NCBI GenBank assembly: GCA_000992085.1
Contig: LBTN01000013.1
Span: 1-39,438 of the forward strand
Direction of reading: 5' to 3'
Origin: Candidatus Magasanikbacteria bacterium GW2011_GWA2_37_8
Lineage (GTDB): Bacteria > Patescibacteriota > Patescibacteriia > Magasanikbacterales > GWA2-37-8
Length of the DNA stretch: 39,438 bases
Shown one piece after another: positions 6,070 through 39,199 of the stretch (the first letter of the stretch is position 1; each line of letters begins with the position of its first letter). The translations under genes and the position numbers were made by a program. The notes beneath the pieces are model-generated. The model was given only the letters and a program-made list of their open reading frames with translations. It made no database searches and had not been told where the DNA came from.

Positions 6070-6120
6070 TAAGTATAAATTCATAGCTACTAAAACCTGT
6101 TGGCTGTGAACTATTGAATT

Positions 6121-7218
6121 ATGTTAACTTCGGATTTTAATTACAATCTTCCCAAAGAATTAATTGCTCAAACTCCAGCAGAAAAGCGTGATGAATCGCG
6201 ACTTTTGGTGATTAATCGGGAGACGAAAGAAATTAATCACCGGCAGTTTTTTAATATTATCGAATATTTACGTCCGGGTGATTTGTTGGTTTGGAACAAT
6301 TCTAAAGTGTTTAAAGCACGTTTAAAAGGCGTACTTGTTTTAGATGAAGAAGTATTTGACTTAAAGGGAAAAGATTTAACGGATCGAATTTTAAATGAGC
6401 CAAGTGTTGAAATTTTTTTGGTTAGGCCAATGGAAAATTTTGGAGTATGGAAAGTATTGGCCAAGCCGGGTAAAAAATTACGTTTGGGTATGAAAGTAGT
6501 TTTTGCCGAAGATTTTTTTGCGGAAGTAATTACCAAAGAAGAAGACGGTACGGTATTGGTGCAATTTCAAGATGATGATATTACAGTGCGAACAAAAGCG
6601 AATAAGTATGGTGAAGTGCCAACACCGCCGTATATTAAGGAACAAGGAGCAAGGAATAAGGAACAACTTGTTGAACGGTATCAAACTGTGTATGCAAAAG
6701 AAGAAGGGTCGGTGGCGGCGCCGACAGCGGGGTTTCATTTTACCGAAGAGTTGATAGAAAAATTAAAAAATAAGGGAATAGAATTTGCCGAGGTTACTTT
6801 GCATGTTGGTCTTGGTACATTTTTGCCAGTTAAAGTAGAAAAAGTAGAAGAGCACAAAATGCACGCCGAATGGGTAGAATTAACCGATAAAAATGCGCAA
6901 TTAATAAACGCAGCCAAAGCTGAAGGTAGGCGAGTGGTGGTGGTTGGTACAACGGCAGTGCGAACTTTGGAAGGGATATTTGCCAAACGGGAAAGTTTAG
7001 AAGCGTTTAGTGGTGATATTAATATTTTTATTACCCCTGGTTTTAAATTTAAAGTAGTAGATGCATTAATTACCAACTTTCATTTACCCGAATCTACTTT
7101 AATAATGTTGGTGTCTGCTTTTGTGGGTGACAGAGAATTTACTCTAGATTGTTACAAAAAAGCAGTCGAAGCAAATTATCGTTTTTATAGTTTTGGCGAT
7201 GCAATGTTTGTTTTTTAG
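6121..7218 (+). CDS. queA: S-adenosylmethionine:tRNA ribosyltransferase-isomerase QueA
   Basis: LPKELIAQTPAEKRDESRLLVI, YQTVYAKEEGSVAAPTAGFHFT, LHVGLGTFLPVK, FHLPESTLIMLVSAF. Confidence 0.95.
   Translation: MLTSDFNYNLPKELIAQTPAEKRDESRLLVINRETKEINHRQFFNIIEYLRPGDLLVWNNSKVFKARLKGVLVLDEEVFDLKGKDLTDRILNEPSVEIFLVRPMENFGVWKVLAKPGKKLRLGMKVVFAEDFFAEVITKEEDGTVLVQFQDDDITVRTKANKYGEVPTPPYIKEQGARNKEQLVERYQTVYAKEEGSVAAPTAGFHFTEELIEKLKNKGIEFAEVTLHVGLGTFLPVKVEKVEEHKMHAEWVELTDKNAQLINAAKAEGRRVVVVGTTAVRTLEGIFAKRESLEAFSGDINIFITPGFKFKVVDALITNFHLPESTLIMLVSAFVGDREFTLDCYKKAVEANYRFYSFGDAMFVF
6637..6666 (+). repeat. Heptanucleotide array inside queA
   Basis: AAGGAAC AAGGAGC AAGGAAT AAGGAAC AA, translated KEQGARNKEQ. 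Confidence 0.9.
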
Positions 7219-7219
7219 A

Positions 7220-7248
7220 TTGACAAAACGCTAAAAATGTGCTATAAT
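7220..7248 (+). promoter_or_regulatory. Putative sigma70-type promoter for ORF 7291-7581
   Basis: TTGACA (7220-7225), 17-nt spacer, TATAAT (7243-7248). Confidence 0.75.
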
Positions 7249-7290
7249 GTATAGGTAAATGGCTTAATTTAGCCAAATAATTACAACAAT

Positions 7291-7581
7291 ATGGGAGAAC
7301 ATGCGCAAATTTTAAGTTCACATCGCGATGATGAAAGGTTTAGAATAATAAATGCTCCAAGCAAACCAAAAAAAGAAGGTGTGGTAGAAGCATTATCTTC
7401 CTCAGTTATTAGAAGAAGAGCAAGTGGCCAAGTTGTTGAAAGTACAACACCAGTAGCAAAAGTAGCAAAAGAAGATTATGCGCGAGAGATAAGAGCTAGA
7501 TTAAATGCTCCACTTACACAAGGCGCACAAGTAAGTAGAGAAGAACAAATGAATAGATTAAAAGCCTTGTTTAAAGAATAA
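7291..7581 (+). CDS. Hypothetical small charged protein
   Basis: 96-aa ORF between a consensus promoter and a strong terminator; no family recognised. Confidence 0.6.
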   Translation: MGEHAQILSSHRDDERFRIINAPSKPKKEGVVEALSSSVIRRRASGQVVESTTPVAKVAKEDYAREIRARLNAPLTQGAQVSREEQMNRLKALFKE

Positions 7582-7587
7582 TTTTAA

Positions 7588-7620
7588 AAACAAAAAACCA
7601 ACGTTAGTCGTTGGTTTTTT
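7588..7620. terminator. Bidirectional intrinsic terminator between ORF 7291-7581 and rplK
   Basis: AAAAACCAACG-ttag-TCGTTGGTTTTT hairpin. Confidence 0.75.
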
Positions 7621-7630
7621 AATTTATTTC

Positions 7631-8056: not shown

Positions 8057-8121
8057 ATATTTTTTTAAATTAATTCTTTTAGAAAAGTGAGAAGCGTCAA
8101 ATTATGACCACCTTTCTTTTG

Positions 8122-8908: not shown

Positions 8909-11140
<2,232 letters not shown>

Positions 11141-13455: not shown

Positions 13456-14314
13456 ATTTTAATTATGAAATTTAAACTTTATTCTCCTTATAAACCCGCT
13501 GGCTCTCAACCCGAAGCTATAAAACAGCTTGTTTTTGGTTTGGAGAGTGGAATGAATAAACAAACTTTGCTTGGTGTTACTGGCTCGGGAAAAACTTTTA
13601 CTATTGCTAATGTTATCGAAAAAGTGCAAATACCTACTTTGGTAATTGCCCATAACAAAACTTTGGCTGCCCAACTTTGTAACGAGTTTAGAGAATTTTT
13701 TCCGGGTAATGCCGTGGAATATTTTGTTTCTTATTACGATTATTATCAACCTGAGGCATATATGCCGGGTAGCGATACCTAAACCGAATACGAAAAAATA
13801 GTTTTGCATTTAGAGCAAGGGCAAAAATTAAATCGCACCGAAATGTTGGCGCAATTAATCGAAATGCAATTTGAGCGCACTACCAGTGATTTGCGTCGCG
13901 GTCAGTTTCGCCTGCGCGGACAAGTTTTTGAAGTAATGCCAGTGAACGAGGAAATAATTTATCGTTTAGAAATTTCTGAAAGGATTGATTTGATTGAAAT
14001 GGTAGATGCAGTAACCAGAAAAGTAAAACACGAAACGAGTGATATGTGGTTGTTTCCAGCCAAGCATTATGTAGCTGGTCCAGAAATGCGCGAGCGAGCT
14101 TTTAAGACTATTAAGCAAGAACTAAAAGAACAGCTGACTATCTTTGAGAAAAAGGGAAAAGTTTTGGAATACGAAAGATTAAAACGCCGTGTGAATTATG
14201 ATTTAGAAATGATAAAAAATATTGGCTATTGCAATGGTATTGAAAATTATTCACGTCATTTCGATGGACGCAATGCTGGTGAACCACCATTTAGTTTGTT
14301 GGATTATTTTAATA

Positions 14315-14342
14315 AAGGAGTAAGGAGTAAGGAAAAAGGAGT
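14315..14342 (+). repeat. Heptanucleotide array 1 inside uvrB
   Basis: AAGGAGT AAGGAGT AAGGAAA AAGGAGT. Confidence 0.9.
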
Positions 14343-14644
14343 AAATAATAATTTTCTTACTGTTATCGATGAGTCGCACGTTACTGTTCCGCAAATTAAT
14401 GGTATGTATGCTGGTGATAAAGCGCGTAAAGATACTTTGGTAGAACATGGGTTTAGACTACCAAGTGCACGTGATAATCGTCCGCTTAATTATGTTGAGT
14501 TTGAAAAACGTGTTAATCAAACTATTTATGTTTCGGCTACACCAAGTGAGTATGAATTAGGGGAGAGCAAACAAGTGGTGGAACAAATTGTACGCCCAAC
14601 TGGGCTAGTTGATCCAGAAATTATCGTTAGGCCGGTTACTGGAA

Positions 14645-14672
14645 AAGGAATAAAGAATAAAGAAAAAGGAAT
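14645..14672 (+). repeat. Heptanucleotide array 2 inside uvrB
   Basis: AAGGAAT AAAGAAT AAAGAAA AAGGAAT. Confidence 0.85.
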
Positions 14673-15206
14673 AAGCCAATTATCCCAGATTGAAGATTTA
14701 ATAATTCGTATTGATGAGCGTATAAAAAGTAAAGAACGTGTGCTTGTAACTACTCTTACCAAAAAAATGGCAGAAGATTTGAACGATTATTTATTAAAGA
14801 AAAAGTATAAGGTGAAATATTTACATTCTGATATTCAAACTTTGGAACGTATCGAAACCATCACCGCACTTCGCAAAGGTATAATTGATGTGATAGTAGG
14901 TGTAAACTTGTTGCGTGAAGGTTTGGATATGCCAGAGGTGTCACTCGTGGCGATTTTAGATGCCGATAAAGAAGGATTTTTGCGTAGTGCCACTAGTTTG
15001 ATTCAGACTATTGGCCGCGCTGCTAGGAATGTTAATGGCCAAGTAATTTTGTATGCCGATAATATTACCCAATCAATTGAGAAAGCGATTAGCGAAACCA
15101 ATCGTCGTCGCACAATCCAGTTGGCCTACAACAAAGAACATAACATAACACCCAAAACAATTGAAAAAAGTATTAAAGATATTTTAGGAGAATTAGGGGT
15201 TAGTTC

Positions 15207-15234
15207 AAGGAGTAAGGAAAAAGGAGCAAGGAAT
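15207..15234 (+). repeat. Heptanucleotide array 3 inside uvrB
   Basis: AAGGAGT AAGGAAA AAGGAGC AAGGAAT. Confidence 0.9.
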
Positions 15235-15408
15235 AAACGGACAACGTCGGATAAAATTTTAGAACTTGATTTACTTGGAGACAAACGACCGCTTGAAGAA
15301 ATTATTAAAGACAAAGAAAGTCAAATGAAAGAAGCGGCGAAGAATTTAGAATTTGAGTTGGCGGCAATATTGCGTGATGAAATTTACAAATTAAATAAAC
15401 AAACTAAA

Positions 15409-15432
15409 AAAACGGCTTAAGGCCGTTTTTTG
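15409..15432. terminator. Bidirectional terminator whose loop carries both convergent stop codons
   Basis: AAAAAACGGC-TTAA-GGCCGTTTTTT. Confidence 0.75.
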
Positions 15433-15985: not shown

Positions 15986-16050
15986 TACTTTGTTCTTTAT
16001 ATTTTAAGATATACCTAATTAACCCCGTGATGGGGCTTTTTGGCATTTTT

Positions 16051-18627
16051 ATGCAAAATAAAATAATTATTCATGGAGCGAGAGAGCACAATCTAAAGAA
16101 TATAGATCTAGAGTTACCGCGTAATAAGATGGTTGTGTTTACAGGGCTTTCTGGCTCGGGAAAATCGAGCCTGGCTTTTGATACTATTTTTGCCGAGGGT
16201 CAACGTCGGTATATCGAATCTTTATCTGCGTATGCCAGACAGTTTTTGGGTGGTATGCAAAAACCAGATGTTGATGAAATAACTGGTTTGTCGCCGGCTA
16301 TTTCTATTGATCAAAAGGCACACAGCGCTAACCCGCGTTCTACTGTTGCTACTATCACCGAGATTTATGATTATTTACGTGTTTTGTATGCGCGTATTGG
16401 TGCCCCGCATTGTCCGATTTGTGGAACAAAAATTGAAAAAATGACAGTAGATGAGATGACAGAACGCGTAGTCCGTAAAGTTGAAAGTTATAAAGTTAAT
16501 AAAGTTAGCGAGTTAATTGTGTTGGCACCAGTAGTACGCGGACGTAAAGGAGAATATTATCAGATGCTTTATGATATGTATAACTCTGGATTTTTGGAAG
16601 TGCGGGTAGATGGTAAAATGAAAAGTTTAAAAGAAAGAATTGTTTTAGGAAAAAATACCAAACATACGATTGAGGTGGTGGTGGATAAGTTCATAGCCAA
16701 TAGTTCACAGCCAATAGTTGTAGAAAAAAGATTAGCCGAAGCAGTAGAAACTGCGGTGGGTTTGTCTAAGGGGCTTTGTACAGTAATTTTTCCAGATAGC
16801 GAAGAGCAGATTTTTTCTACGGAATATTCTTGTCCCAAAGACGGTTTTAGTTTTCCCGAAATCGAACCACGATTGTTTAGTTTTAATAGTCCTTATGGCT
16901 ATTGTGATTATTGTACTGGTCTTGGTACCAAAACTTTGTTTTCTGAAGAAGTTTGCCCAAAATGTAATGGTAAAAGATTAAACGAAACTGCTTTGAGTGT
17001 AAAAATTAATAACAAAAATATTTGGGAAGTGGTAAGTATGCATATTGGCGAAGTGCGGGATTTTTTTGCAGAAACAGAAATGTCTTTGCCGGCGCAAGAA
17101 CAAGAAATCGCTGGAGCAGTGCTTAAAGAAATCGCCAATCGTTTGCAATTTATGTATGATGTAGGTTTGCATTATTTAACCTTAAATCGTACAGCAGGCA
17201 CTTTAAGTGGTGGTGAAGCACAGCGTATTAGGTTGGCTTCGCAAGTGGGTACAAAATTGGTAGGTGCCTTGTATGTGCTAGACGAGCCGACAATTGGTTT
17301 ACATCAAAAAGATAATGATCAATTAGTAAAGACCCTGCGTAATTTATGTGACGTGGGTAATACTATTATTGTGGTCGAACATGATGAAGATACAATTTTA
17401 GTCAGTGATTGGATAGTGGATATTGGGCCCGGCGCTGGAAAACATGGCGGAGAAGTAGTGTATAGCGGCCCAACAAAGTCTGTCGTCCTGAGCGGAACCC
17501 GAAGGGCGGAGTCGAAGGATCCCTTAATTGATTGTAAAACATTTGGCGATCCTGCCAAATCACTTACTGGTAAATATTTACGCGGAGAAGTAAAAATTCC
17601 TTTACCAGAAAAACGTCGTAAAGTTGACAGTTCGACTCCAAAATTAAAAATTAAAGGCGCTACAGAACATAATTTAAAAAACATTAATGTGGAAGTTCCG
17701 TTGCGTCGTTTTGTTTGTTTAACTGGTGTGTCTGGTTCTGGCAAAAGTACTTTAATGCGCGATATTATTCAAAAAACAGTATCTAATAAATTTAATCATT
17801 TAAATAAACCAACGGGGCAATTTAAAGAAATTCTTGGTATAGAATATTTGGATCGAATTATTACTATTGACCAAAGTCCAATTGGTCGTACACCGCGTTC
17901 TAATCCAGCCACCTATACCAAAGCTTATGATTTTATTCGCGAATTATTCGCTTCAACTGCAGAAGCGCGTATGCGCGGTTTTAGTACTAGTCGTTTTAGC
18001 TTTAATGTACCAGGGGGAAGATGTGAAAATTGTGAAGGTAGGGGATTTTTGGAAATTGAAATGCATTTTTTACCTAGCGTGCAAATAGTGTGCGATGTGT
18101 GTAAAGGCAAAAGGTTTAATCAAGAAACTTTGCAGATTGATTTTAAAGGAAAGAATATTGCTGATGTTTTGGAAATGACTATTGAAGACGCTGAAGATTT
18201 TTTTCGTGATATCCCGGTGATTTATGATAAACTAAAAATATTAAACGAGGTAGGTTTAGATTATTTAACTTTGGGCCAATCTGCCACCACTTTGTCTGGT
18301 GGTGAAGCGCAGCGTATCAAACTTTCTCGTGAGTTAGCTAAACATGGCACTACCAAAACTTTGTACTTGTTAGATGAGCCAACCACTGGTTTGCACTATG
18401 AAGACGTGCGTAAATTATTAATTGTGCTTGAGCGTTTGGTAAGCCAAGGGAATACAGTATTGGTAATTGAACATAATTTAGATGTAATAAAATGCGCCGA
18501 TTGGATAATTGATTTGGGGCCAGAAGGAGGGGATAAGGGTGGAGAAGTGATAGCAACTGGGACACCAATAGAGGTGGCGCGAAAAAAAGGAAGTTATACT
18601 GGGGAGTATTTGAAAAAAGTTTTATAA
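16051..18627 (+). CDS. uvrA: UvrA excinuclease ABC subunit A, full length
   Basis: [66 protein letters not shown]; two ABC domains, zinc CxxC motifs. Confidence 0.97.
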
Positions 18628-19043: not shown

Positions 19044-20291
19044 ATGGTAGTTGTTAAAAACAATATTCGTAGTTTTCCAGATAAACCAGGTATTTATCTT
19101 TTTTTTGATTCTCAAAAAGAACTTATTTATGTAGGTAAGGCTACAAGTTTGAAGAATCGGGTAAAGTCGTATTTTGTTAGCACTAAGACATCACGTCCGA
19201 TTGAGCAGATGATACATAAGGTGGTAGATATAAAAACTATCCAAACAGACTCGGTTTTGGAAGCGATTATTCTAGAGGCAAATTATATTAAAAAATTTCA
19301 GCCAAAGTATAATGTTGATTTAAAAGATGATAAGAGTTGGAATTATATTGTAATAACCAATGATAAATTTCCAAGAGTAAATACTATTAGACAACACGAA
19401 TTTAAAAATTTGAAATTAGAAATTAAAAATTTTCAATTTACATTTGGTCCTTATCCTGGTTTAAAAACCAAAGAAATGATGAGTCTGCTTCGTAAGTTAT
19501 TTTATATTTCCACTTGTGAATCAGACAAAGGTAAACCTTGTTTTTACCGTCAATTAGGACAGTGTTTGGGTGTGTGTATCGGAGAAATTAGTCCAAGTGA
19601 ATATAAAAAGAAAGTGATTAAGCCGTTAGTACAATTTTTAAGTGGGAAGAAAAAAAGTTTACTAAAAAATTTAGAGCGTGAAATGAAGTTAGCTTCTAAA
19701 AATCACGAGTTTGAAGAAGCGGGAAGACTGCGAGATCAAATTAGGCAATTAAATAGGATACAAGATGTAGCGCTACTAAATAAGAGTTTTGTGGAAAATG
19801 AAAAATTAGGAAATTCAGAAATTAGGAAGCTCAGAAATTTAAGGATTGAAGGGTATGATATTTCTAATTTAGGAACCACTGGCAAAGTGGGGAGTATGGT
19901 GGTATTTGAAAATAATGAGGCGAATAAATCGCAGTATCGTAAATTTAAGATTAAAACTGTAGTAGGCCAAAGCGATGTCGATTGTCTTGGCGAAGTATTG
20001 ATAAGGCGTTTAAAACATACAGACTGGCCGTTGCCCGAGGTATTTTTAATTGATGGCGGTATGCCTCAAGTTAATCGAACAAAAAAAATACTTAACTCTT
20101 TGAATATTAATATACCCGTAGTCGGAATTGCTAAAGGATCGGAACGAAAGAAAAATGATTTTATAATTAGTAATTATCAAAGTAAGGATTTTGTCTATTG
20201 GGTAAATGAAAACAAAAAATTATTAATTCAAGTGCGCGATGAAGCGCATCGATTCGCAATTAAGTATCAACGAACATTGCGTAAAATTTAA
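19044..20291 (+). CDS. uvrC: UvrC excinuclease ABC subunit C (no C-terminal HhH domain visible)
   Basis: GIY-YIG nuclease (KPGIYLFFDSQKELIYVGKATSLKNRVKSYF), UVR motif, RNase H-like domain (IEGYDISN...VGSMVVFENNEANKSQYRKFKIK...LIDGGMPQVN). Confidence 0.93.
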   Translation: MVVVKNNIRSFPDKPGIYLFFDSQKELIYVGKATSLKNRVKSYFVSTKTSRPIEQMIHKVVDIKTIQTDSVLEAIILEANYIKKFQPKYNVDLKDDKSWNYIVITNDKFPRVNTIRQHEFKNLKLEIKNFQFTFGPYPGLKTKEMMSLLRKLFYISTCESDKGKPCFYRQLGQCLGVCIGEISPSEYKKKVIKPLVQFLSGKKKSLLKNLEREMKLASKNHEFEEAGRLRDQIRQLNRIQDVALLNKSFVENEKLGNSEIRKLRNLRIEGYDISNLGTTGKVGSMVVFENNEANKSQYRKFKIKTVVGQSDVDCLGEVLIRRLKHTDWPLPEVFLIDGGMPQVNRTKKILNSLNINIPVVGIAKGSERKKNDFIISNYQSKDFVYWVNENKKLLIQVRDEAHRFAIKYQRTLRKI

Positions 20292-22541: not shown

Positions 22542-23391
22542 TCATTTCAATTTCCACCAACCTGTCTAATCCAGACAGGTCTTTTTTTATTGTAATTTTT
22601 GCTTGAGGCAGGTACCTGTTGATTAATGATTTTATTGCTTTAATTTGGCTAGGGTCGATTTCGAGACAAATTAACAATGAACAATTAGTAATTAGCAAAA
22701 GAGGTTGTATTTGTAATAAAAGTTTTTCATAGAGAGAAAGCCCGTTGGTATTATCAGCAACCAGTGCTAGTTGTGGTTCTTTTTGAATTGATGGTTCGGA
22801 TATAAATTGATTGTTGGTAAGATAGGGGAGATTGGCGGTGATAATTAAATTATTAAATTGATAAATTGATAAATTGTTAAATGGTGACAGTAGATCGCCG
22901 TGTAAAAAATTTATGTTTACATTATGTATTTTAGCGTTTTTTTTGGCTACTCGTAGCGCTTGGCGAGAGATGTCGATTGCGATTGTTTTGATATTATTAT
23001 TTATATTTTTAATAATCGAAATCGGAATACAGCCAGAGCCTGTGCCAATATCAATTAAAATTAGGTTTGATTTTTCGTAATTTTTTATTTTTTTAATTAC
23101 CGTTTCAACCATAATTTCTGTATCTGGTCTTGGTATTAAAACATGCTTATTTACATAAAAATCCAACCCAAAAAATTCTTTATGTTTTAAAATTGCCGCC
23201 ACTGAATAGCCTTTTTTATATAAATACAGATAGTAGGCGAATTTAATTCTGGATAAAATACTAGGGCGGTATTCGGGGTGGGTCAGCAAAAATACGCGCG
23301 GTTGGTTTATACTGGCGGCTAAAAGCAAATCTAGATCTGTTGCAGCTATTTTGCCAGAGTATTTTTTTTGTATATTACTGAGATTTAACAT
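22531..23391 (-). CDS. prmC: PrmC (HemK) release factor glutamine methyltransferase
   Basis: DFYVNKHVLIPRPDTEIMVE, LIDIGTGSGCIPISI, ITANLPYL, position next to prfA. Confidence 0.9.
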   Translation of the reverse strand: MLNLSNIQKKYSGKIAATDLDLLLAASINQPRVFLLTHPEYRPSILSRIKFAYYLYLYKKGYSVAAILKHKEFFGLDFYVNKHVLIPRPDTEIMVETVIKKIKNYEKSNLILIDIGTGSGCIPISIIKNINNNIKTIAIDISRQALRVAKKNAKIHNVNINFLHGDLLSPFNNLSIYQFNNLIITANLPYLTNNQFISEPSIQKEPQLALVADNTNGLSLYEKLLLQIQPLLLITNCSLLICLEIDPSQIKAIKSLINRYLPQAKITIKKDLSGLDRLVEIEMIKS

Positions 23392-25895: not shown

Positions 25896-25901
25896 AGAAT
25901 T

Positions 25902-25936
25902 AAGGAATAAGGAATAAGGAGTAAGGAGTAAGGAGT
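25902..25936 (+). repeat. Heptanucleotide array (AAGGAAT)2(AAGGAGT)3 in the prfA 5' leader
   Basis: Five consecutive 7-nt units ending 6 nt upstream of the prfA ATG. Confidence 0.9.
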
Positions 25937-26011
25937 AAGTGATGTGATTTGGTATGGTAATTGTTTTATGTCGGTTTGGCTTTTTATTCCTTATTCTTTT
26001 ATTATAAATAA

Positions 26012-27656: not shown

Positions 27657-29565
27657 ATGAATGTAAGTGAATTGGCCAGACAACTTCGAGTGCATCCTCA
27701 AAAACTTTTGCAAATATTGCCAGAGTTTGGTTTTGATATTGGTGCAAAATCTATCAAAATCGATGATCGTGTGGCGCAACAAATCCAACGTGAATGGCGT
27801 CGAATAAAATATATTTTAGATGAACGTGAGCGTAAAGAAAAAGAGGAAGAAAAAGAAAAAGAAAAAGAGCAGCGTCGTGAAAGCGGGGTGGCTGTGTCTA
27901 TCCCGTCAGTTTTAACTGTACGCCAATTAGCAGACAAATTGCAAACGCCAATCAATAAGCTAATGCTAGAATTAATGAAAAATGGTATTTTGGCTACTCA
28001 AAACGAAAATATTGATCACGATACCGCTGTCTTGGTTGCAGAAGAGATGGGGTTTTCTATTGCCGAAGAAGAAGTATTGGCTGTTACTGAAGAAAATACA
28101 AGCCAACATGTTCAAAATTTAGAAAAAACTTTAGGAACTGGTGCTACTGTTCCACGTCCACCAGTAATTGTGGTAATGGGCCATGTTGATCATGGTAAAA
28201 CAAAATTACTCGACGCTATTCGTAGCACTAATGTGGTTGCCCAAGAAGCTGGCGGTATTACCCAACATATTGGTGCTTATCAGGTGGTTTGGAATAATCC
28301 AAAAACAAAAGCTCAAACTCCCTTAACTTTTATTGATACTCCTGGCCACGAAGCTTTTACTGTTATGCGTAGTCGTGGTGCAAAAGTTGCTGATATTGCT
28401 ATTTTGGTAGTAGCCGCCGATGATGGTGTAAAACCACAAACAATTGAAGCAATAAATATTATTAAAGCTGCCAAATTGCCAGTTGTGGTAGCAATTAATA
28501 AAATTGATCGTGAAGGCGCTGATCCACAACGTGTGCGAACCGAATTGTCTCAACATAATATTTTAGCCGATGATTGGGGTGGTGATGTGCCAATGGTAGA
28601 AATTTCTGCAAAACAAAATTTAAATATAGATAAATTGTTAGATACTTTGTTATTAGTTGCCGAAATGAACGCCGAAAATATTAAAGCCAATCCCGATCGT
28701 CCTGCCGCTGGTACAGTAATTGAAGCCCATGTAGACAAAGGACAAGGTCCAGTAGCTACTATTTTGGTGCAAACCGGAACTTTGCACAACAACGATCCCT
28801 TGGTAGTTAATGGGGGATGTTTTAGATGTTAGCCAAGCTGGTGATGCGACAGAAATTAATTTAAAAACTAAACGTACTCAACAATCTGGCGCCGAGCAGC
28901 GTCCAGTGGTGGCTACAGACGAAAATGATGAAGAAGCCAAACAAATGTATAACATTGTTTTAAAAACCGACATGCTTGGTTCTTTAGAAGCAATTGTTGC
29001 TTCTTTAGAAAAAATTAGCCATGATGAAGTGGGTGTAAAAGTGGTAGGGAAAGGTTTGGGTAATATTACCGCCGACGACATTTCTTTAGCAGCCGCTACC
29101 GGAGCTACGGTTTTTGGTTTTAATGTTAACACCACTCCAATCGCCACCGAAATGATGCAAAATGGTGGAGTGCAATTTAAGCAGTATCATGTTATTTATG
29201 ATTTGTTAGATTATGTTAAGGGCGAATTAGAAAAAATGCTAAATCCAGAATTAATTGTTACTGAATTAGGTAATTTTAAAGTTATCGCCCTCTTTCGTAC
29301 CGAAAAAAACAGTATGGTGGTAGGCGGTAGAGTAGAAAAAGGAAAAATATTGCGTAATTGTTTAGCCCATGTTAAACGTGGTGGTGAAATTATTGGTAAA
29401 GGTAAAATTACTAAATTACAAATTAGTAAACAAGAAATGAATGAAGTTCCAGAAGGTAGCGAATGCGGCATCCAGTTTGAAGGTAAATTAAAATTAGAAG
29501 TAGGCGATTTATTAGAAGCCTACAAAGAAGAGAAAAAAGAAAAAAAACTTGTATTAAACGTATAA
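27657..29565 (+). pseudogene. infB: Translation initiation factor IF-2, split by frameshift/deletion near 28800-28815 (probably sequence or assembly artefact)
   Basis: [47 protein letters not shown]; then GDVLDVSQ...NIVLKTDMLGSLEAI in another frame. Confidence 0.9.
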
Positions 29566-31247: not shown

Positions 31248-32105
31248 ATGCCAGAATTGCCCGAAGTAGAAACGATTAAACGCGATTTATTTAAACGAAT
31301 CTTGAACCACAAGATTCGTTTGGTTGAAATTCGTGATAAGAAAATAGTAAAGTCCAATAATTTTGTTAAAAAATTAATTGGTAATGAAATAAAGGGTATT
31401 GAGAGGCGAGGCAAGTTGTTGATATTTGTTTTAAAAAATAAAGAATATTTATTAGTTCATTTAAAAATGACCGGTCAACTAATGTTTAAAGCTAAAAATA
31501 AGTCTGGTAATGTTATAGGCGGACACAGTTTAACAAAAATGGAGGATAATTTTAGTGAAAAATTTACACGAGTGGTAATTGATTTTGGAGTGGGGAAGTT
31601 GTTTTTTAATGATATGCGGCGGTTTGGGTATATGAAGATAGTTGGGGAAGAAGAAAAAGAAAAAATTATTACTAAAGATTTTGGTATCGAGCCGTTGACG
31701 CCAGATTTTACTTGGGATAAATTTAACAAATTATTTAACAAGCGCACAACGTCTATTAAAGCTTTTTTGTTAAATCAAAAAATTATTGCTGGATTAGGTA
31801 ATATTTATGCCGATGAAGCTTGTTTTTGTGCAGGAATTAAACCAGACAGGCAAGTAAACAATATAAATTTAGAAGAAATAAAAAAATTATTTAAATGTAT
31901 ACCAAAAATTTTGCAACTGGCAATAAAAAATCGTGGTACTACTTTTAATAGTTTTGTTGATGGCGATGGTCAAAAGGGAAGTCATTTTAATTTTTTAAAA
32001 GTTTACGGCAGACACAAAGAAAAATGTAAACGTTGTTCAGAAAAAATAAAGAAAATTCGTCTAGTTGGCCGAGGAACACATTTTTGTCCGGGGTGCCAGA
32101 AATAA
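31248..32105 (+). CDS. mutM: Formamidopyrimidine-DNA glycosylase MutM (Fpg)
   Basis: MPELPEVETIKRDL; C-terminal zinc finger CKRCSEKIKKIRLVGRGTHFCPGCQK. Confidence 0.95.
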   Translation: MPELPEVETIKRDLFKRILNHKIRLVEIRDKKIVKSNNFVKKLIGNEIKGIERRGKLLIFVLKNKEYLLVHLKMTGQLMFKAKNKSGNVIGGHSLTKMEDNFSEKFTRVVIDFGVGKLFFNDMRRFGYMKIVGEEEKEKIITKDFGIEPLTPDFTWDKFNKLFNKRTTSIKAFLLNQKIIAGLGNIYADEACFCAGIKPDRQVNNINLEEIKKLFKCIPKILQLAIKNRGTTFNSFVDGDGQKGSHFNFLKVYGRHKEKCKRCSEKIKKIRLVGRGTHFCPGCQK

Positions 32106-32190
32106 GGCTGTTTCTTGCTTTTTTATCTATACTTTAGTAAAATTAAGATTACCAATTAAGGTAATTTTTGATATATACTTTTATGATCTA

Positions 32191-35067
32191 TTGAGTCATA
32201 AAAATATATATTCCGGAATATATAAAACCAAAGACAATAGTGATAAACCCAAATATTATGTTTTGGATATGTTTCCGTATCCTTCTGGTGCTGGGTTGCA
32301 CGTTGGTCACCCTAAGGGATATATTGCCACCGATGTTGTAGCCAGAATGAAAATGATGCAAGGGTACAATGTGCTTCACCCTATGGGTTGGGATGCTTTT
32401 GGGCTTCCAGCAGAAAATTATGCTTTAAAAAACAAAGTACATCCTTCGGTAGCTACCGAAGAAAATATAAAAACTTTTAAAAAACAATTAGGTTTACTTG
32501 GTCTTACTTATGATTGGGATCGCGAAGTAAATACCACTGATCCAGAATATTACAAATGGACCCAATGGGCATTTATTCAAATGTTTAAGCGTGGGCTCGC
32601 GTTTGAGTCTTATGAACCAATTAATTGGTGCCCTGAATGTAAAACTGGTTTGGCTAATGAAGATTTGGAAAATGGTTTGTGCGAACGTTGTGGTAGTGTA
32701 GTGGTGCAAAAACCGATGCGTCAGTGGGTGCTTAAAATTACCGACTATGCAGAAAGATTATTGAATGATATTGATAAGTTGGATAAATGGCCAACTTCAA
32801 TTAAAGAAATGCAGAAAAATTGGATTGGAAAGAGTGAAGGGGCGACAGTAAAATTTTCTGTCATTTCGAACGAAGGTGAGAAATCTGCGCTCGAGGTTTT
32901 TACCACTAGGCCAGATACTTTGTTTGGAGCAACATATTGTGTAATTGCGCCAGAACATGAATTGATAATGAATCAAGAATCAAGAATCAAGAATTATGAC
33001 GAAGTAAAAAATTATGTTGAGAATGCAAAAAAGAAAACTACTTTAGAAAGAACTGATTTGCAGAAAGAAAAAACTGGTGTAGAAGTAAAAGGTATAAAAG
33101 CAATTAATCCAGTAAATAACGAAGAGCTGCCAATTTTTGTAGCTGATTATGTTTTGGGCGGATATGGTACAGGCGCGATTATGGCAGTGCCAGCTCACGA
33201 TGAACGTGATTTTGAGTTTGCTAAAAAATATAATTTGCCAATTAAACGAGTGGTGGCACCGCATTTTGTTGATCCTGCTAATCCACCACATTCTGATTTG
33301 CCAACTACTAGGCGTAAAACTATTCATGTTATTATTCGCAATCCAAAAGACGGTAAGGTTTTGCTTTTAAATTGGTTTACAAATCTTACTCCAAGTCGTC
33401 CACATTTGCATACTTTAGTCCTTGGCGGGATAGAGGAAGGAGAAAATTTAGCTGTGGCCGCAATTAGAGAAGCACAAGAAGAAACTGGCTACAAGAATTT
33501 TAAGTTTTTAAAAGAAGTAGATTTAGAAGTTCATACTGAATATTATACTGAACACAAAGGGCAGAATCGCTATGCAGAAATTCATATAGTAGAATTGGAA
33601 TTAGAAGACGAAGAAAGAGAAAAAATTCCAGAGAGTGAATTAAAAAACCATGAGCCAGTTTGGGTAGAAGAAAAAGAAGTGCCAGAGAAGTTAAATGTTA
33701 TTGATGGTCCAATAATTTGGGGTGCTTATAAGAATGGTTACTTCGCCTTTACTGAAGATGGTGTAACTGTCAATTCTGAATTTTTAAATAATTTAAAAAC
33801 TCCAGAGGCGAAAACAAAAATAATTGCCTGGTTGGAAGAGCAAGGCGTGGGTAAAAGAAAAGTACAATACAAATTACGTGATTGGGTATTTTCTCGACAA
33901 CGTTATTGGGGCGAGCCAATCCCACTTGTTAATTGTGGAAAATGTGGTTGGGTATCAGTGCCTGAATTAGAATTACCACTTAAATTACCGGAAGTAAAAA
34001 ATTATGAACCAAGTGGAACAGGGGAGTCGCCACTCGCAAATATTGAAAAATGGGTGAATACCATTTGTCCAGTGTGTGGCGGGCCAGCAAAAAGAGAAAC
34101 TAATACCATGCCACAGTGGGCAGGCTCGTGTTGGTATTACCTCGCATATTGCATGCTTGGAAAGGAAAAAGGAGTAAGGAGTAAGGAAAAATATAAATGG
34201 GATAAAGAAAAAATAAATTATTGGAATCCGGTGGATTTGTATGTTGGCGGTGCCGAACATGCTACGCGTCATCTTATCTACGCTCGTTTTTGGCATAAGT
34301 TTTTGTTTGATATTGGCGTAGTAGCGAACGAAGAACCATTTACACGTTTGCAAAATGTGGGTTTGATTTTGGCTGAAGATGGACGAAAAATGAGTAAACG
34401 TTGGAACAATGTTATCAATCCAAATGATATGGTAGATCAGTTTGGCGCAGATGCAATGAGATTGTATGAAATGTTTATGGGGCCGTTTGATCAGCCGTGC
34501 GCTTGGAGTACAAATGGCGTGGTAGGTACAAGAAGGTTTTTAGAAAAGGTGTGGTGGTTAAGTGAAAAAGTTAATGATTTAGAAGATAACAAAACTAATG
34601 AGAAAACAAAATTAGATACATTACTTCATCAAACTATAAAAAAAGTTACCGAAGATATTGAAGCGATGAGATATAACACCGCAATTTCTCAGTTGATGAT
34701 TTTGGTGAATGAGATGTCAAAAGAAAATCAGCTATTTCTTACTCATTATTCCTTACTCCTTCAATTGCTTGCTCCCTTTGCTCCTCATGTTTCAGAAGAA
34801 TTGTGGTATGAATTAGGGAATAATGAATCCATTTTTGAGTCCGTATGGCCGCAGTGTGATAATGCACTAGCCAAATCAGAAACTTTTACTTTGGCTATTC
34901 AGATTAATGGTAAATTGCGTGAGACTATTGAGGTGTCTGCTGATATATCAGAAGAAGAAGCAAAAGCTCAAGTTTTGGCTTTGCCACAAATTCAAAAGTG
35001 GTTGGAAGATAAAGAACCAAAGAAAATAATTTATGTAAAAGGGAAATTAATTAGTATTGTAGTTTAG
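32191..35067 (+). CDS. leuS: Leucyl-tRNA synthetase with inserted Nudix domain (5' end uncertain)
   Basis: KPKYYVLDMFPYPSGAGLHVGHPKGY, VFTTRPDTLFGATY, VPAHDERDFEFAKKY, RKMSKRWNNVINP; Nudix box GGIEEGENLAVAAIREAQEETGY. Confidence 0.93.
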   Translation: MSHKNIYSGIYKTKDNSDKPKYYVLDMFPYPSGAGLHVGHPKGYIATDVVARMKMMQGYNVLHPMGWDAFGLPAENYALKNKVHPSVATEENIKTFKKQLGLLGLTYDWDREVNTTDPEYYKWTQWAFIQMFKRGLAFESYEPINWCPECKTGLANEDLENGLCERCGSVVVQKPMRQWVLKITDYAERLLNDIDKLDKWPTSIKEMQKNWIGKSEGATVKFSVISNEGEKSALEVFTTRPDTLFGATYCVIAPEHELIMNQESRIKNYDEVKNYVENAKKKTTLERTDLQKEKTGVEVKGIKAINPVNNEELPIFVADYVLGGYGTGAIMAVPAHDERDFEFAKKYNLPIKRVVAPHFVDPANPPHSDLPTTRRKTIHVIIRNPKDGKVLLLNWFTNLTPSRPHLHTLVLGGIEEGENLAVAAIREAQEETGYKNFKFLKEVDLEVHTEYYTEHKGQNRYAEIHIVELELEDEEREKIPESELKNHEPVWVEEKEVPEKLNVIDGPIIWGAYKNGYFAFTEDGVTVNSEFLNNLKTPEAKTKIIAWLEEQGVGKRKVQYKLRDWVFSRQRYWGEPIPLVNCGKCGWVSVPELELPLKLPEVKNYEPSGTGESPLANIEKWVNTICPVCGGPAKRETNTMPQWAGSCWYYLAYCMLGKEKGVRSKEKYKWDKEKINYWNPVDLYVGGAEHATRHLIYARFWHKFLFDIGVVANEEPFTRLQNVGLILAEDGRKMSKRWNNVINPNDMVDQFGADAMRLYEMFMGPFDQPCAWSTNGVVGTRRFLEKVWWLSEKVNDLEDNKTNEKTKLDTLLHQTIKKVTEDIEAMRYNTAISQLMILVNEMSKENQLFLTHYSLLLQLLAPFAPHVSEELWYELGNNESIFESVWPQCDNALAKSETFTLAIQINGKLRETIEVSADISEEEAKAQVLALPQIQKWLEDKEPKKIIYVKGKLISIVV
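32970..32997 (+). repeat. Heptanucleotide array (GAATCAA family) inside leuS
   Basis: GAATCAA x3, GAATTAT. Confidence 0.88.
34162..34189 (+). repeat. Heptanucleotide array inside leuS
   Basis: AAGGAAA AAGGAGT AAGGAGT AAGGAAA. Confidence 0.9.
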
Positions 35068-35071
35068 GATT

Positions 35072-36595
35072 ATGTTAGGAGGGGCGAAAGAAAAAATAAT
35101 TAATTCAAAAAGCAGAACATTTTTATTGTTCTGTTTTTGTTTTATTTTTGGTGTGGGTATTTTTTCTGGTTTCGAACTTGCTGCGTATTGGTTGTATCGT
35201 TTGTATTTGTTGTTGTTCTTATTAGGATTTTTATTAATTTTATTTTGGCATAAAATTAACTGGCGATTTTTTTTGTTGGGCGGGGTATTTTTTGTGTTAG
35301 GTGGAGCACGCTTTATGTTTTCTGTGCCAGCTGAAGATAATCCGAATTTAATTAAATTTTATAATGGAGAACAAAAGGATTTGGTTGGTTATGTAGCGGA
35401 TGAGCCAGAAATCGGAATAGATGGGGCGAAGTATGTAGTACAAATTTTAGATAACAATATTTCAGGTAAAATTTTAGTGAATTTACCTCTTTATCCACAA
35501 TACCAATATGGTGATGAATTAAAATTAAAATGTAATTTACAATCACCAAAAAATTTTGTTGGTAGTAATTTTCGTTATGACAATTATTTGGCCAGGCAGG
35601 GGGTTTGGTCGGTGTGTGGTTCACCTGTCATCCTGAGCGTTGGCGAAGGATCTTCGCCACAATCGTTTGGAATTGCGCTAAAAAATAAAATGTTGATACT
35701 CAAATCGTATGTAGGCGATAAAATAAACACATTATGGCCAGAACCAGAATCAAGTTTGATGGCCGGGTTGTTATATGGCGCGCGTTCTAGCATGCCAGAT
35801 GAAATAAAGAATAATTTTAATAAAGTTGGTCTAACTCATATTGTGGCAATTTCTGGTTACAATATTAGTATTATCGCTGCAATTTTAATGGTTAGCTTGA
35901 TAAGTTTTGGCTTAAATCGTCGACGTGCTTTTTGGTTTTGTATTAGTGGAATAATTTTATTTGTTTTATTTACTGGTGCCACTGCATCGGTTGTGCGTGC
36001 CGGTATTATGGGTATTATTGTATTGTTGGCTAATCAATTAGGCAGATTATCGCGAGTAGGTAATATATTGGTTGCCACCGCGGTGATTATTTTACTAATT
36101 AACCCCTATGTGTTAATTTGGGACGCCGGTTTTCAATTATCTTTTATAGCCACCATGGGGTTAATTTATTTAAGCCCAATTATTGAAGAAAAGATAAATT
36201 TAAATAAAAAATTAGTTGGATTAAAAAGTTTGTTACTAGAAAGTTTGATTTCCACATTGTCGGCCATTATCGCTACGTTGCCACTTATACTTTACCAATT
36301 TGGCAGGTTATCTGTTGTGGCACCATTAGCGAATATTTTAATTTTATGGATAATTCCCTGGTTAATGTTTTTTGGTTTTATTTCAGTTGTATTAAGCGTA
36401 ATATTTTTTCCATTAGGGTTAGTATTAGCTTGGATTACTGGACTAGGATTAAAATATGTTATAATATTAACCGAGTGGTTAGCTGGTTTCTCTTGGTCAT
36501 CGATTGAGATTAGTTTGCCGATTTGGGGGTTGATAGGGTTGTATGTAATTTTGATATTTGTGATAATAAGAAGTAAAAAGAAAATACATTTATGA
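35072..36595 (+). CDS. ComEC/Rec2-type competence membrane domain protein
   Basis: DUF4131-like N-terminus, ESSLMAGLLYGARSSMPDEIKNNFNKVGLTHIVAISGYNISIIA, multiple TM. Confidence 0.88.
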   Translation: MLGGAKEKIINSKSRTFLLFCFCFIFGVGIFSGFELAAYWLYRLYLLLFLLGFLLILFWHKINWRFFLLGGVFFVLGGARFMFSVPAEDNPNLIKFYNGEQKDLVGYVADEPEIGIDGAKYVVQILDNNISGKILVNLPLYPQYQYGDELKLKCNLQSPKNFVGSNFRYDNYLARQGVWSVCGSPVILSVGEGSSPQSFGIALKNKMLILKSYVGDKINTLWPEPESSLMAGLLYGARSSMPDEIKNNFNKVGLTHIVAISGYNISIIAAILMVSLISFGLNRRRAFWFCISGIILFVLFTGATASVVRAGIMGIIVLLANQLGRLSRVGNILVATAVIILLINPYVLIWDAGFQLSFIATMGLIYLSPIIEEKINLNKKLVGLKSLLLESLISTLSAIIATLPLILYQFGRLSVVAPLANILILWIIPWLMFFGFISVVLSVIFFPLGLVLAWITGLGLKYVIILTEWLAGFSWSSIEISLPIWGLIGLYVILIFVIIRSKKKIHL

Positions 36596-37197
36596 AAAAA
36601 ATAAAAGTTTTATCTTCTTCGGTTGGTTATGATTTGGCCGCTAAAGATTATGATAAGAAAGAATCATATTTAAATAGTTTTGAAACAGACAAATTGTTGC
36701 CTTTGCTTGGAGATTTGGACGGTAAAAAAGTTTTAGATGTGGGGGCGGGTACAGGTAGGCTAACATTAAAATTAGCCAAAGCAGGGGCAGAAGTGGTTGC
36801 GCTTGATGTGTCAGAGGAAATGCTTAAAAGAATTATGAATTATGAATCAAGAATCAAGGTAGTGATTGGTGATGCAGAAGATTTGCCATTTCCAAATGAG
36901 AGTTTTGATTTTGTTACTGCTGCTTTTTTAGTTGTTCATTTAAAAGATTTGGAACGGTTTTTTGATGAAGTTTACAGGGTATTAAAACCAAATGGTAAAT
37001 TTTTAGTCACTAATATTAATCAAAAAGAACCGCCAGAAGTAAATACAAAAGAGGGGATAATAAAAATAGAGTCATATTATCATCGGCCAGAAAAAGTAGT
37101 AGAGGAGTTGGAAAAATTAGCATTTAATATTGAGAAAGAAGAATTTGTTAAAGAAAATGAGGTGTGGATTAATCAAATTATTTTGGCGAGCAAATAA
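36592..37197 (+). CDS. Class I SAM-dependent methyltransferase
   Basis: VLDVGAGTGRLTLKLAKAGAEVVALDVSEEMLKR...GDAEDLPFPNESFDFVTAAFL; ATGA overlap with the upstream gene. Confidence 0.9.
   Translation: MKKIKVLSSSVGYDLAAKDYDKKESYLNSFETDKLLPLLGDLDGKKVLDVGAGTGRLTLKLAKAGAEVVALDVSEEMLKRIMNYESRIKVVIGDAEDLPFPNESFDFVTAAFLVVHLKDLERFFDEVYRVLKPNGKFLVTNINQKEPPEVNTKEGIIKIESYYHRPEKVVEELEKLAFNIEKEEFVKENEVWINQIILASK
36830..36857 (+). repeat. Heptanucleotide array (GAATTAT/GAATCAA family) inside the methyltransferase gene
   Basis: GAATTAT x2, GAATCAA x2. Confidence 0.88.
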
Positions 37198-37199
37198 TC

Positions 37200-37669
37200 A
37201 CTTCTTTACACACCAACCGTTCTTTATATATTACAGGCCAATTGCCTCTTACTTTTTTGAAAAAGTAAGCAAAAACTTCGAGCTGGTGGTTCGTGTCGGA
37301 TAATTTAGGGTTCATTAATGTTTTTGACTCGAACTCCCCCGCATACTGCGGGGTCAAACAACGAGTCAAATCCGCCCGTAGGGCGGATCACATTAATTCA
37401 CCTCTAAATTAAACCTCACTCACCAAGGCTCGGGACAGTTGGTTGGCCAACGTTGGCCAGGCGAGCGTTGAGAATTTAGAATGGTAATTAAGAGATGGAG
37501 TATGAGTGTCCCCGCAGGGGTTTGGCTCGTTGTTTGAGCGAAGCGAGTTCGAGCCAAAAACGAATACGCAATCCTTAATTAGCGTTCTAACATTCTCATT
37601 GTCTCGCGATTTCTTTGAGTCCCTTTCTTATAAAAGAAAGGGACAAGAACGGGTGGTATGTGAAGAAGT
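37200..37669. repeat. ~470-bp nested palindromic intergenic element with ~24-bp terminal inverted repeats
   Basis: ACTTCTTTACACACCAACCGTTCT (37200-37223) versus AGAACGGGTGGTATGTGAAGAAGT (37646-37669), inverted with 3 mismatches; 16-bp palindrome TGGCCAACGTTGGCCA at 37444-37459; at least six internal hairpins. Confidence 0.85.
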
Positions 37670-37686
37670 ATTAAATAAGAAAGATT

Positions 37687-38547
37687 ATGAAAAAAATAAT
37701 TATAGTCCTATTAATACTACTTGCGTTGGTTTTAGGGCTATTTTTTTATATAAAATTTTATTCTTCAAACAAATTTCAGATTATTTTTTTAAACGTTGGT
37801 CAAGGTGATTCTGCTTTGATTAAATTTCGTAATGGCGAAAAAATGTTAGTTGACTGTGGGCCAGATCGAAAGATTCTATCTAAATTAGGGCAATATCTGC
37901 CTTTTTACGATCGCACAATTGATGTTTTACTTGTAACACACCCGGATTTAGATCATTATGGTGGCTGTGCAGATATTTTAAAACGTTATCAGGTAAAAAA
38001 GATTATTACTAATGGTGAAATCAAAGATTCTGACCCGTTTTTTCAAGTATGGCAAAAAATGGTAATGCAAGAAAATGCAGAAAATTTAGTAGTTTTTTAC
38101 CCTGAAGAAATAATTATTGCCAGTACCACTTTTAAATTTTTATCACCGGATAATAGTTTGGGTTTAGAAGATAAAATAAAAGAGGGTAATAATAACTCTA
38201 TTGTTTTTCAATTACAGGATTTGGCTGTTGGTAAAGTTTTGTTTACCGGAGATATGGAATTACCTTTAGAAAATGCTTTGTTAACAAAATATTGCCCAGA
38301 TTTTACATCTTCTACCTTACCCTGTCCGAGTTTGCAATCCGATTATCTCAAAGTTGGTCATCACGGCAGTGATAGTTCTTCGGGTGATAATTTTTTACAA
38401 GCAGTTAATCCAAAAGTATCAATTATCTCCGTTGGCAAAAATACTTTTGGCCATCCTTCGTTTCGAGTGTTACGACATTTAGAAAGAGCTGGTACAGTAA
38501 TCTGGCGGACAGACGAAAAAAATGATATAATAATTGGAGAAAATTAA
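37687..38547 (+). CDS. ComEC-type metallo-beta-lactamase-fold hydrolase
   Basis: FLNVGQGDSALIKFRNGEKMLVDCGPD...LLVTHPDLDHYGGCADIL...LKVGHHGSDSSSGDNFL. Confidence 0.92.
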   Translation: MKKIIIVLLILLALVLGLFFYIKFYSSNKFQIIFLNVGQGDSALIKFRNGEKMLVDCGPDRKILSKLGQYLPFYDRTIDVLLVTHPDLDHYGGCADILKRYQVKKIITNGEIKDSDPFFQVWQKMVMQENAENLVVFYPEEIIIASTTFKFLSPDNSLGLEDKIKEGNNNSIVFQLQDLAVGKVLFTGDMELPLENALLTKYCPDFTSSTLPCPSLQSDYLKVGHHGSDSSSGDNFLQAVNPKVSIISVGKNTFGHPSFRVLRHLERAGTVIWRTDEKNDIIIGEN

Positions 38548-38563
38548 TAAGTAACAATTAACA

Positions 38564-39199
38564 ATGAAGAATAAATTAAAAATTTGGATAATGGCGTGGG
38601 TTGTATTATTAGTTGTTTTTTCTTTACCAAAAATTTGTTTGGCAGCCGAAGTGGATTCGGATAGCGACGGATTAAATGATGAACTAGAATTAAAATTAGG
38701 CACCGATCCGAATAATGCGGATACCGACGGTGATAGTTTTAAAGATGGGACAGAAGTATATAATGGTTTTAATCCATTGGCAGGAGATAAAAATAAAAAA
38801 ATAAAACGGAATGTAGAAGTTAATCTTAATACCCAACAGTTATCATATTTTTTTAATGGTGTAAAAATCGGTGGTATGCCAGTTTCTACTGGATTGCGCG
38901 GTTGGGATACACCAAATGGGGAATTCAAGATAATGAATAAGTTTCCTTCCAAACTTTACAAAGGTGTTAATTATTATTATCCGAACACTAAATGGAACTT
39001 GGAATTTAAGCGTGGTTTTTATTTGCATGGCGCTTATTGGCACAATCAATTCGGTATAAGGCCTATGAGCCATGGTTGTGTAAACATAGCTTATAAAGAT
39101 GTCGAAAAATTATATCGTTTTCTATCGGTAGGGGACGTGGTTAAAATTGTAGGCAAAACCCCCACTAAATTGCCGTTAAAAGTTAGTGTAAATAATTAA
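38564..39199 (+). CDS. L,D-transpeptidase (YkuD) with N-terminal calcium-binding-like TSP3 repeats
   Basis: Signal peptide; DSDSDGLNDELELKLGTDPNNADTDGDSFKDGTEVYNGFNPLAGD; catalytic LHGAYWHNQFGIRPMSHGCVNI. Confidence 0.92.
   Translation: MKNKLKIWIMAWVVLLVVFSLPKICLAAEVDSDSDGLNDELELKLGTDPNNADTDGDSFKDGTEVYNGFNPLAGDKNKKIKRNVEVNLNTQQLSYFFNGVKIGGMPVSTGLRGWDTPNGEFKIMNKFPSKLYKGVNYYYPNTKWNLEFKRGFYLHGAYWHNQFGIRPMSHGCVNIAYKDVEKLYRFLSVGDVVKIVGKTPTKLPLKVSVNN

What the first reader, a model, noticed from the sequence alone, without database searches (positions are those of the whole stretch)
6080..38569. Locus-wide family of short (mostly four-unit, ~28 nt) heptanucleotide arrays embedded in frame in housekeeping genes
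By eye I find 7-nt tandem arrays, mostly with four recognisable units, in queA (6637-6666), uvrA (16690-16717), uvrB (three), uvrC (19406-19433), prmC (22668-22695), leuS (32970-32997, 34162-34189, inverted 34741-34761) and the 36592 methyltransferase (36830-36857). They also occur in non-coding leaders (prfA 25902-25936, L,D-transpeptidase 38542-38569). Several unrelated unit families share the same period and similar copy number: AAGGAGT, GAATCAA/GAATTAT, AAATTAG, CAATTAG, TTCATAG/CCAATAG. A shared period with different unit sequences suggests a common generating process rather than one mobile sequence. Precedents for parts of this are cyanobacterial heptanucleotide STRRs and Rickettsia palindromic elements inserted in ORFs. 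I do not know of a described system combining several unit families, a period of 7, about four copies and in-frame residence in universal genes.
Basis: partly seen in the sequence, partly recalled or inferred. Interest (0 to 1): 0.85.

Follow-up and report, generated by a model that had tools for sequence, protein, structure and literature searches.

The report
Four-unit seven-base repeats inside housekeeping genes
This tiny-genome bacterium, and many of its distant relatives, carry short stretches of a seven-base word repeated about four times, scattered through the genome and even inside essential genes, where only copies that can be read as harmless protein survive; the four-copy length and seven-base period stay constant while the word changes, and nobody knows what writes them.

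Summary
The window is a contig of a low-GC Patescibacteria genome (864,631 bp). Period-7 arrays are far above chance genome-wide (66 versus about 1), and all claimed window arrays exist, though uvrA's is a 14-base unit. In the main family (AAGGAGT, 57 arrays) 43 have exactly four units, followed by a conserved AA: a 30-base block. Its intergenic copies often occur as inverted pairs that fold into strong hairpins. In genes, 24 arrays lie in the orientation that reads KGVRSKEKGV-like peptides, and only the unit whose TAA would fall in frame is altered. Different unit families sit at the same protein positions in other genera, with many independent gains. Some arrays add 5-8 residues; others replace host sequence at exactly equal length. 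The closest known case is the Xanthomonas GGGAATC heptamer (mostly four units, inverted pairs, but 89-93% intergenic), with Rickettsia palindromic elements for in-frame residence. I read these as dispersed non-autonomous repeats filtered by selection in genes. The copying mechanism is unknown; no Y1/RAYT transposase was found. Verdict: real, a new variant of a known kind.

The parts
6637..6666 (+). queA array AAGGAAC AAGGAGC AAGGAAT AAGGAAC AA (family A, four units), read as KEQGARNKEQ
   Evidence: segment 26 aa versus 21 aa in most orthologs, four relatives carry other arrays here
14315..14344 (+). uvrB array 1, AAGGAGT AAGGAGT AAGGAAA AAGGAGT AA, read as KGVRSKEKGV
   Evidence: +8 aa versus modal ortholog
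14645..14674 (+). uvrB array 2, AAGGAAT AAAGAAT AAAGAAA AAGGAAT AA, read as KGIKNKEKGI
   Evidence: +8 aa versus modal ortholog
15207..15236 (+). uvrB array 3, AAGGAGT AAGGAAA AAGGAGC AAGGAAT AA, in the linker before the UVR motif
   Evidence: little or no net length change
16688..16719 (+). uvrA array of a 14-base unit (TTCATAGCCAATAG / TTCACAGCCAATAG): two different heptads, two copies; family with at least ten copies in the genome
19406..19433 (+). uvrC array of AAATTAG-like units
   Evidence: segment length within the ortholog range
19803..19839 (+). second uvrC array (period 8/16) at a site where relatives carry AAATTTC, AAATTCG or CAATTAG heptamer arrays
22668..22695 (-). degenerate CAATTAG/CAATGAA array in prmC
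   Evidence: 16/21 at lag 7; not detected by TRF at score 30; orthologs not compared
25901..25939 (+). prfA leader array, five to six TAAGGAR units, best array of the window
25986..25999 (-). inverted partner of the prfA leader array; the 112-base stretch folds with z = -5.3
32970..32997 (+). leuS array GAATCAA x3.6, read as NQESRIKNY; replaces equal-length ortholog sequence
34162..34191 (+). leuS array AAGGAAA AAGGAGT AAGGAGT AAGGAAA AA, read as KEKGVRSKEK; 28 aa segment versus 21 aa in 62 orthologs
34734..34761 (-). leuS inverted family-A array, read as hydrophobic FLTHYSLLL in a helix; equal length to orthologs
36830..36858 (+). methyltransferase array GAATTAT x2, GAATCAA x2, read as IMNYESRIK
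   Evidence: orthologs not compared
38542..38569 (+). [quoted passage not shown]

Best explanation
The arrays are dispersed, non-autonomous short repeats: about 30-base blocks of four heptamers, often arranged as the two arms of a hairpin of about 60-85 bases. New copies are written into other sites of the genome by an unidentified copying process (transposition-like insertion or short-patch ectopic replacement; inferred). Genes receive them too, but a copy survives in a gene only if it keeps the frame, lacks an in-frame stop and gives a peptide that fits the spot: hydrophilic KGVRSKEKG in loops, or hydrophobic [10 protein letters not shown] in buried helices. Shown here: dispersal of each family to many loci, the fixed size, the inverted pairs, patchy distribution, recurrent gain at the same protein sites, and the stop and orientation filter. 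Inferred: the act of copying, the enzyme, and the reason for 7 x 4.
For: Family A has 57 arrays at unrelated loci, 43 of exactly four units with a sharp left end and a conserved AA after the fourth; AAGGAGTAAGGA occurs 31 times versus 0.06 expected. The four-unit rule holds in intergenic copies too, so it is not caused by reading frame. Period-7 array lengths peak near 30 nt in this genome and in 80 unrelated loci. Inverted pairs with short loops fold with z -4.4 to -6.9. Family A is abundant in only two of 86 genomes of the order, and related genomes lack arrays in the stretches read. In sense arrays inside ORFs the in-frame unit carries AAA or CAA in 31 of 32 cases, while out-of-frame units keep TAA in 56/64, like intergenic 86/106. 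Sense arrays outnumber antisense 24 to 7 although intergenic arrays would be open in only 8/78 sense frame choices versus 71/78 antisense; sense peptides are hydrophilic (mean -1.98), antisense hydrophobic (+1.47). uvrB loops carry different arrays or other palindromic elements in different genera. A second genus, G073, repeats the size and stop pattern.
Against: No transposase of the REP-mobilising (Y1) type in this genome, which is about 90% complete. No empty site from a near-identical strain was available, so insertion and target duplication were not seen. At two leuS positions all 14 array-bearing windows scored have exactly the modal length of array-free orthologs, which fits replacement, not simple insertion. 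Variation is confined to unit positions 3, 6 and 7, more orderly than neutral decay of copies. Dispersal does not explain why unrelated unit families share period 7 and four units.
Confidence: 0.6

Rival explanations
1. Ordinary microsatellites: each array grew in place by replication slippage of a local seven-base word.
For: Heptamers are reported as over-represented among bacterial simple repeats, with polymerase contact length suggested as the cause (cited in PMC4692102). Arrays at one site differ in unit and length between L137 and L144, 83% identical there, so turnover is fast.
Against: The same word recurs at dozens of unrelated loci. Lengths are peaked at four units instead of decaying. 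Units within an array differ, but only at set positions. Equal-length replacement at leuS sites.
Confidence: 0.12
2. The arrays are functional DNA or RNA motifs, for example hairpin terminators or binding sites of a DNA-binding protein, kept by selection where they lie.
For: Inverted pairs fold well; unit positions 1, 2, 4 and 5 are nearly invariant; density is several times higher outside genes than inside.
Against: Half of the family-A arrays are inside genes, mostly as single arms; gene functions are unrelated; the word differs completely between related genomes and whole genomes lack arrays.
Confidence: 0.12
3. A dedicated generator (a template or ruler of fixed size) writes about 30-base blocks of period 7 regardless of sequence.
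For: The same 7 x 4 size is seen for many unit families in many genera, and in Xanthomonas (PMC4692102).
Against: No candidate gene is identified; families are shared among loci within a genome, which plain copying already explains.
Confidence: 0.11
4. Protein-level selection for seven-residue helical patterns produced the repeats through codon choice.
For: Encoded peptides suit their sites, for example ISNLKSQISNW in a leuS helix.
Against: Out-of-frame TAA and intergenic copies keep the same word; four 7-base units are 28 bases, not whole seven-residue repeats; Markov controls give about 1 array; all three phases are used.
Confidence: 0.05

Closest known systems
Xanthomonas GGGAATC and Nostoc GGGGA(C/T)T heptameric repeats (PMC4692102)
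   Same: Period 7, dispersed in dozens to hundreds of copies, four units most common (Xanthomonas), many convergent inverted pairs (Xanthomonas)
   Different: There one G-rich, quadruplex-capable word and 89-93% intergenic in Xanthomonas; here several AT-rich words, and about half of the main family's arrays inside genes
Rickettsia palindromic elements (RPE; reviewed in PMC10969869)
   Same: Dispersed palindromic elements integrated in frame in unrelated genes, compatible with the host protein's fold
   Different: RPEs are about 150 bp in non-tandem families; here about 30 nt tandem blocks, alone or paired
TAACTGA direct repeats of Beggiatoaceae, cyanobacteria and others (PMC4679880)
   Same: Heptamer arrays of two to six units dispersed in a genome; forward copies carry stops in all frames
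   Different: One word, mostly just upstream of start codons; forward copies in ORFs only at ORF ends. Here forward copies lie inside genes with the in-frame stop altered
Cyanobacterial STRR heptanucleotides
   Same: Dispersed short heptanucleotide arrays (from own knowledge and citations in PMC4692102)
   Different: Described mainly as non-coding; sequences not compared here
Borg tandem repeats (PMC9879509)
   Same: Widespread tandem repeats in ORFs that create new peptide segments
   Different: Borg ORF repeats have unit lengths divisible by three and units that differ at each locus; here the unit is 7 and shared across loci

Membership tests
Bacterial heptameric dispersed repeats (Xanthomonas type) | period 7 strongly over-represented | tested here: met
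   66 versus 1.0 expected
Bacterial heptameric dispersed repeats (Xanthomonas type) | four units most common | tested here: met
   43 of 57 family-A arrays; length mode near 30 nt
Bacterial heptameric dispersed repeats (Xanthomonas type) | convergent inverted pairs | tested here: met
Bacterial heptameric dispersed repeats (Xanthomonas type) | G-rich unit and mainly intergenic location | tested here: not met
   AT-rich units; 31 of 57 inside ORFs
Rickettsia palindromic elements | in-frame residence in unrelated genes, compatible with the protein | tested here: met
Rickettsia palindromic elements | about 150 bp palindromic element in non-tandem families | tested here: not met
   about 30 nt tandem block; only some are paired
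REP elements mobilised by RAYT | Y1 (RAYT) transposase gene present | tested here: not met
   no PF01797 match in G000; 16 of 57 genomes searched have one; G000 is about 90% complete
Slippage microsatellites | local origin and length distribution decaying from the minimum | tested here: not met
   shared words, peaked lengths
Mobile (MITE-like) element | target-site duplication and empty sites in near-identical strains | not testable with these tools
   nearest comparators are about 72% identical; AA at both ends of the block is compatible with a 2-bp duplication but does not prove it
Cyanobacterial STRR | sequence relation of units | not tested
   no STRR sequences were compared

The most novel reading that the evidence does not exclude
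A conserved but unknown machinery in Patescibacteria (and some other lineages) writes blocks of about four seven-base units into DNA, replacing a short patch of host sequence at near-constant length, so that essential enzymes repeatedly acquire new, repeat-encoded segments at the same structural positions, with a unit sequence set by the genome and not by the gene.
Probability: 0.2. Interest if true: 0.85.

Novelty: new variant of a known kind. Interest (0 to 1): 0.62.

Why it matters
It shows a quantitative rule (seven bases, about four units, about 30 nt) that holds across unrelated unit sequences and genera, which slippage does not predict and which can be tested on existing genomes. It also gives clean, repeated cases of non-coding repeats becoming protein segments in universal enzymes, with the selective filter (frame, stops, hydropathy) readable base by base. 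For annotators it explains the recurrent KGVRSKEKGV, NYELRIKNYE and ISNLKSQISN stretches in Patescibacteria proteins.

Tried and rejected
RAYT/Y1 transposase as mobiliser: absent in G000 and most relatives. Fixed-length simple insertion: rejected as a general rule, since net change ranges from 0 to more than 11 residues, with 0 in all 14 arrays scored at two leuS positions except one L113 array at +4 near the first. Frame constraint as the cause of four units: rejected, since intergenic arrays also have four. Known RNA family: only one tRNA in the window. Same-genus genomes (G007/G015/G024, G017/G021, genus g23) as empty-site comparators: no arrays in the stretches read, and only 70-80% identity. 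Genus-level searches centred on the array-rich loci L139 and L146 were not possible. Literature: no paper on heptamer arrays in Patescibacteria was found in the library, which lacks most subscription journals.
Full report
What the window is. The window is contig C13 of a draft genome of 864,631 bp in 44 contigs. In a LeuS tree its nearest rows are MAGs labelled Patescibacteria group bacterium (L088, 74% identity over kept columns) and Candidatus Magasanikbacteria (L108). About 95% of the genome (822,607 bp) was read as loci L001-L057 plus the window.

Check of the observation. The uvrA array is really a 14-base repeat of two unlike heptads (lag-7 10/21; TRF period 14), and an extra uvrC array has period 8/16. 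Genome-wide, period-7 arrays number 66 against 1.0 in order-4 Markov sequences; period 14 gives 46, period 8 gives 21, period 16 gives 16, and every other period at most 12. Lengths of period-7 arrays peak at 26-33 nt; period 8 behaves alike, but periods 6, 9 and 12 decay from the detection limit. The same peak is seen in 1.28 Mb from 80 unrelated loci. This separates the phenomenon from slippage microsatellites.

Anatomy. The commonest family, AAGGAGT with variants AAGGAAT, AAAGAAT, AAGGAAA and AAGGAAC, has 57 arrays (56 if a contig-end duplicate is removed). Forty-three have exactly four units, ten have five, four have three. The left boundary is sharp at the first A, and AA follows the fourth unit in about 40 of 43, giving a 30-base block. 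Positions 1, 2, 4 and 5 of the unit are nearly constant; 3, 6 and 7 vary (the search demanded at most one mismatch in AAGGA per unit, which lowers variation in positions 1-5 but does not explain its unevenness). Other families are AATTTTT, TAGTTCATAGCCAA, GAATCAA/GAATTAT, CAATTAG/TTGCTAA and AGTAAAC. Ten closely spaced inverted pairs were listed for family A, seven of them intergenic, and other arrays have a short inverted partner, as at the prfA leader. Five such stretches fold with z-scores of -4.4 to -6.9.

Residence in genes. With simple ORF calling (90% of bases), 31 of 57 family-A arrays lie inside ORFs, 24 in the AAGGAGT-sense orientation and 7 reversed, three of the latter being the second arm of an in-frame hairpin. 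All three phases are used. A perfect sense array has a TAA in every frame within 21 bases. In the 24 sense arrays the unit whose TAA would be in frame carries AAA (20), CAA (11) or AAT (1), while out-of-frame units keep TAA in 56 of 64 cases, as do intergenic units in 86 of 106. That no in-frame stop is seen is true by definition of an ORF; what is informative is that only that unit differs. Intergenic arrays would be open in 8 of 78 sense frame choices and 71 of 78 antisense ones, so stop avoidance alone predicts mostly antisense arrays in genes. The opposite is observed. Peptide hydropathy can explain it: sense peptides average -1.98, antisense +1.47, and some antisense arrays sit in hydrophobic surroundings such as a leuS helix and a hydrophobic protein on L047. 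Array density is about seven times lower in ORFs than outside (computed). Both a frame/stop filter and a composition filter therefore appear to act.

Comparison with orthologs. uvrB sites 1 and 2 are eight residues longer than the modal ortholog. Most relatives have nothing there, while others carry different heptad arrays (AACAAGG in G011) or unrelated palindromic elements at exactly these loops. In one genus, G012 has an AAATATC-type array and G019 a palindromic element at the same site. queA has 26 residues against 21, with four relatives carrying four other arrays. leuS-34162 has 28 against 21 in 62 orthologs. By contrast, arrays at leuS-32970 and leuS-34741 occupy segments of the ortholog length in every array-bearing genome except L113, with different units in each (GAATCAA, AAATCTC, AATTATC; ACTCCTT, TTATTCA, CTGTTCA, TTATACA). 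On the LeuS tree four array positions need 7, 6, 7 and 6 changes. Two relatives 83% identical in that stretch of leuS have different units and lengths at one site. Arrays therefore appear repeatedly at tolerant or fitting positions, sometimes as additions and sometimes as replacements.

Distribution. Family A occurs in 7 of 86 genomes of the order and is abundant in G000 and G073 only. 160 kb of G017/G021 hold no period-7 array. A 383-kb sample of G073, a different genus and family, repeats the four-unit mode, the AA end and the stop pattern; the one in-frame TAA there is the ORF's own stop.

Interpretation. Shown: sharing of a unit family among many loci, fixed block size, inverted pairing, patchy family distribution, recurrent gain at homologous sites, and filtering in genes. 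Inferred: the blocks are non-autonomous dispersed repeats copied by an unidentified process. Equal-length replacement and variable net change make me favour a short-patch ectopic copying process over a classical transposase at present, but this step is weak (about 0.25 on its own). A comEC-like gene lies in the window (ORF 35072-36595, identified by reading the translation only), which makes uptake of DNA possible but proves nothing.

Comparison with known systems. Xanthomonas GGGAATC arrays share period, four-unit mode and convergent pairs but are G-rich and 89-93% intergenic (PMC4692102). Forward TAACTGA repeats are confined to the ends of ORFs (PMC4679880). RPEs supply the in-frame precedent at about 150 bp (PMC10969869). 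Borg ORF repeats have units divisible by three (PMC9879509). The present case combines features of the Xanthomonas heptamers and the RPEs and is best called a new variant of a known kind. The generating process and the reason for four times seven remain open.

Noticed in passing
window 17478-17527: uvrA carries another in-frame element, GTCGTCCTGAGCGGAACCCGAAGGGCGGAGTCGAAGGATCC (read as [15 protein letters not shown]), of the widespread VILSE... palindromic type; relative G044 has a different palindromic element at the same uvrA site.
   Followed up: partly
window 13465-15420: uvrB is interrupted by an in-frame TAA at 13780-13782, between a 105-aa N-terminal part with the Walker A motif and the 538-aa rest; real nonsense mutation or assembly error not decided.
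   Followed up: partly
window 27657-29565: infB (IF-2) is split into two overlapping ORFs in different frames, and the join lacks sequence expected between them.
   Followed up: partly
window 32065-35064: LeuRS contains a NUDIX domain (residues 416-549, Pfam E = 9.6e-14) next to its editing domain; the nucleotide alignment with near relative L108 skips about 500 bases there (window 33245-33747).
   Followed up: partly
window 72-1694: A second UvrA-like ATPase (C-terminal part, 51% identical to the uvrA at 16027) starts the contig; a matching N-terminal part lies on G000:C3:169-1191.
   Followed up: no
uvrB loops in relatives (L078, L085, L214, L225-L229): The same UvrB loops in other genera hold large in-frame palindromic or GC-rich elements (VILSETKNL..., VIANEEKRS...RNDN, LSPRERSGEG), so these loops are general landing places for short repeats.
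   Followed up: partly
genome-wide, G000 and G073: Period-8 arrays are also enriched (21 in G000, 18 in 383 kb of G073) with lengths near 30 nt, so the total length may be more constant than the period.
   Followed up: no
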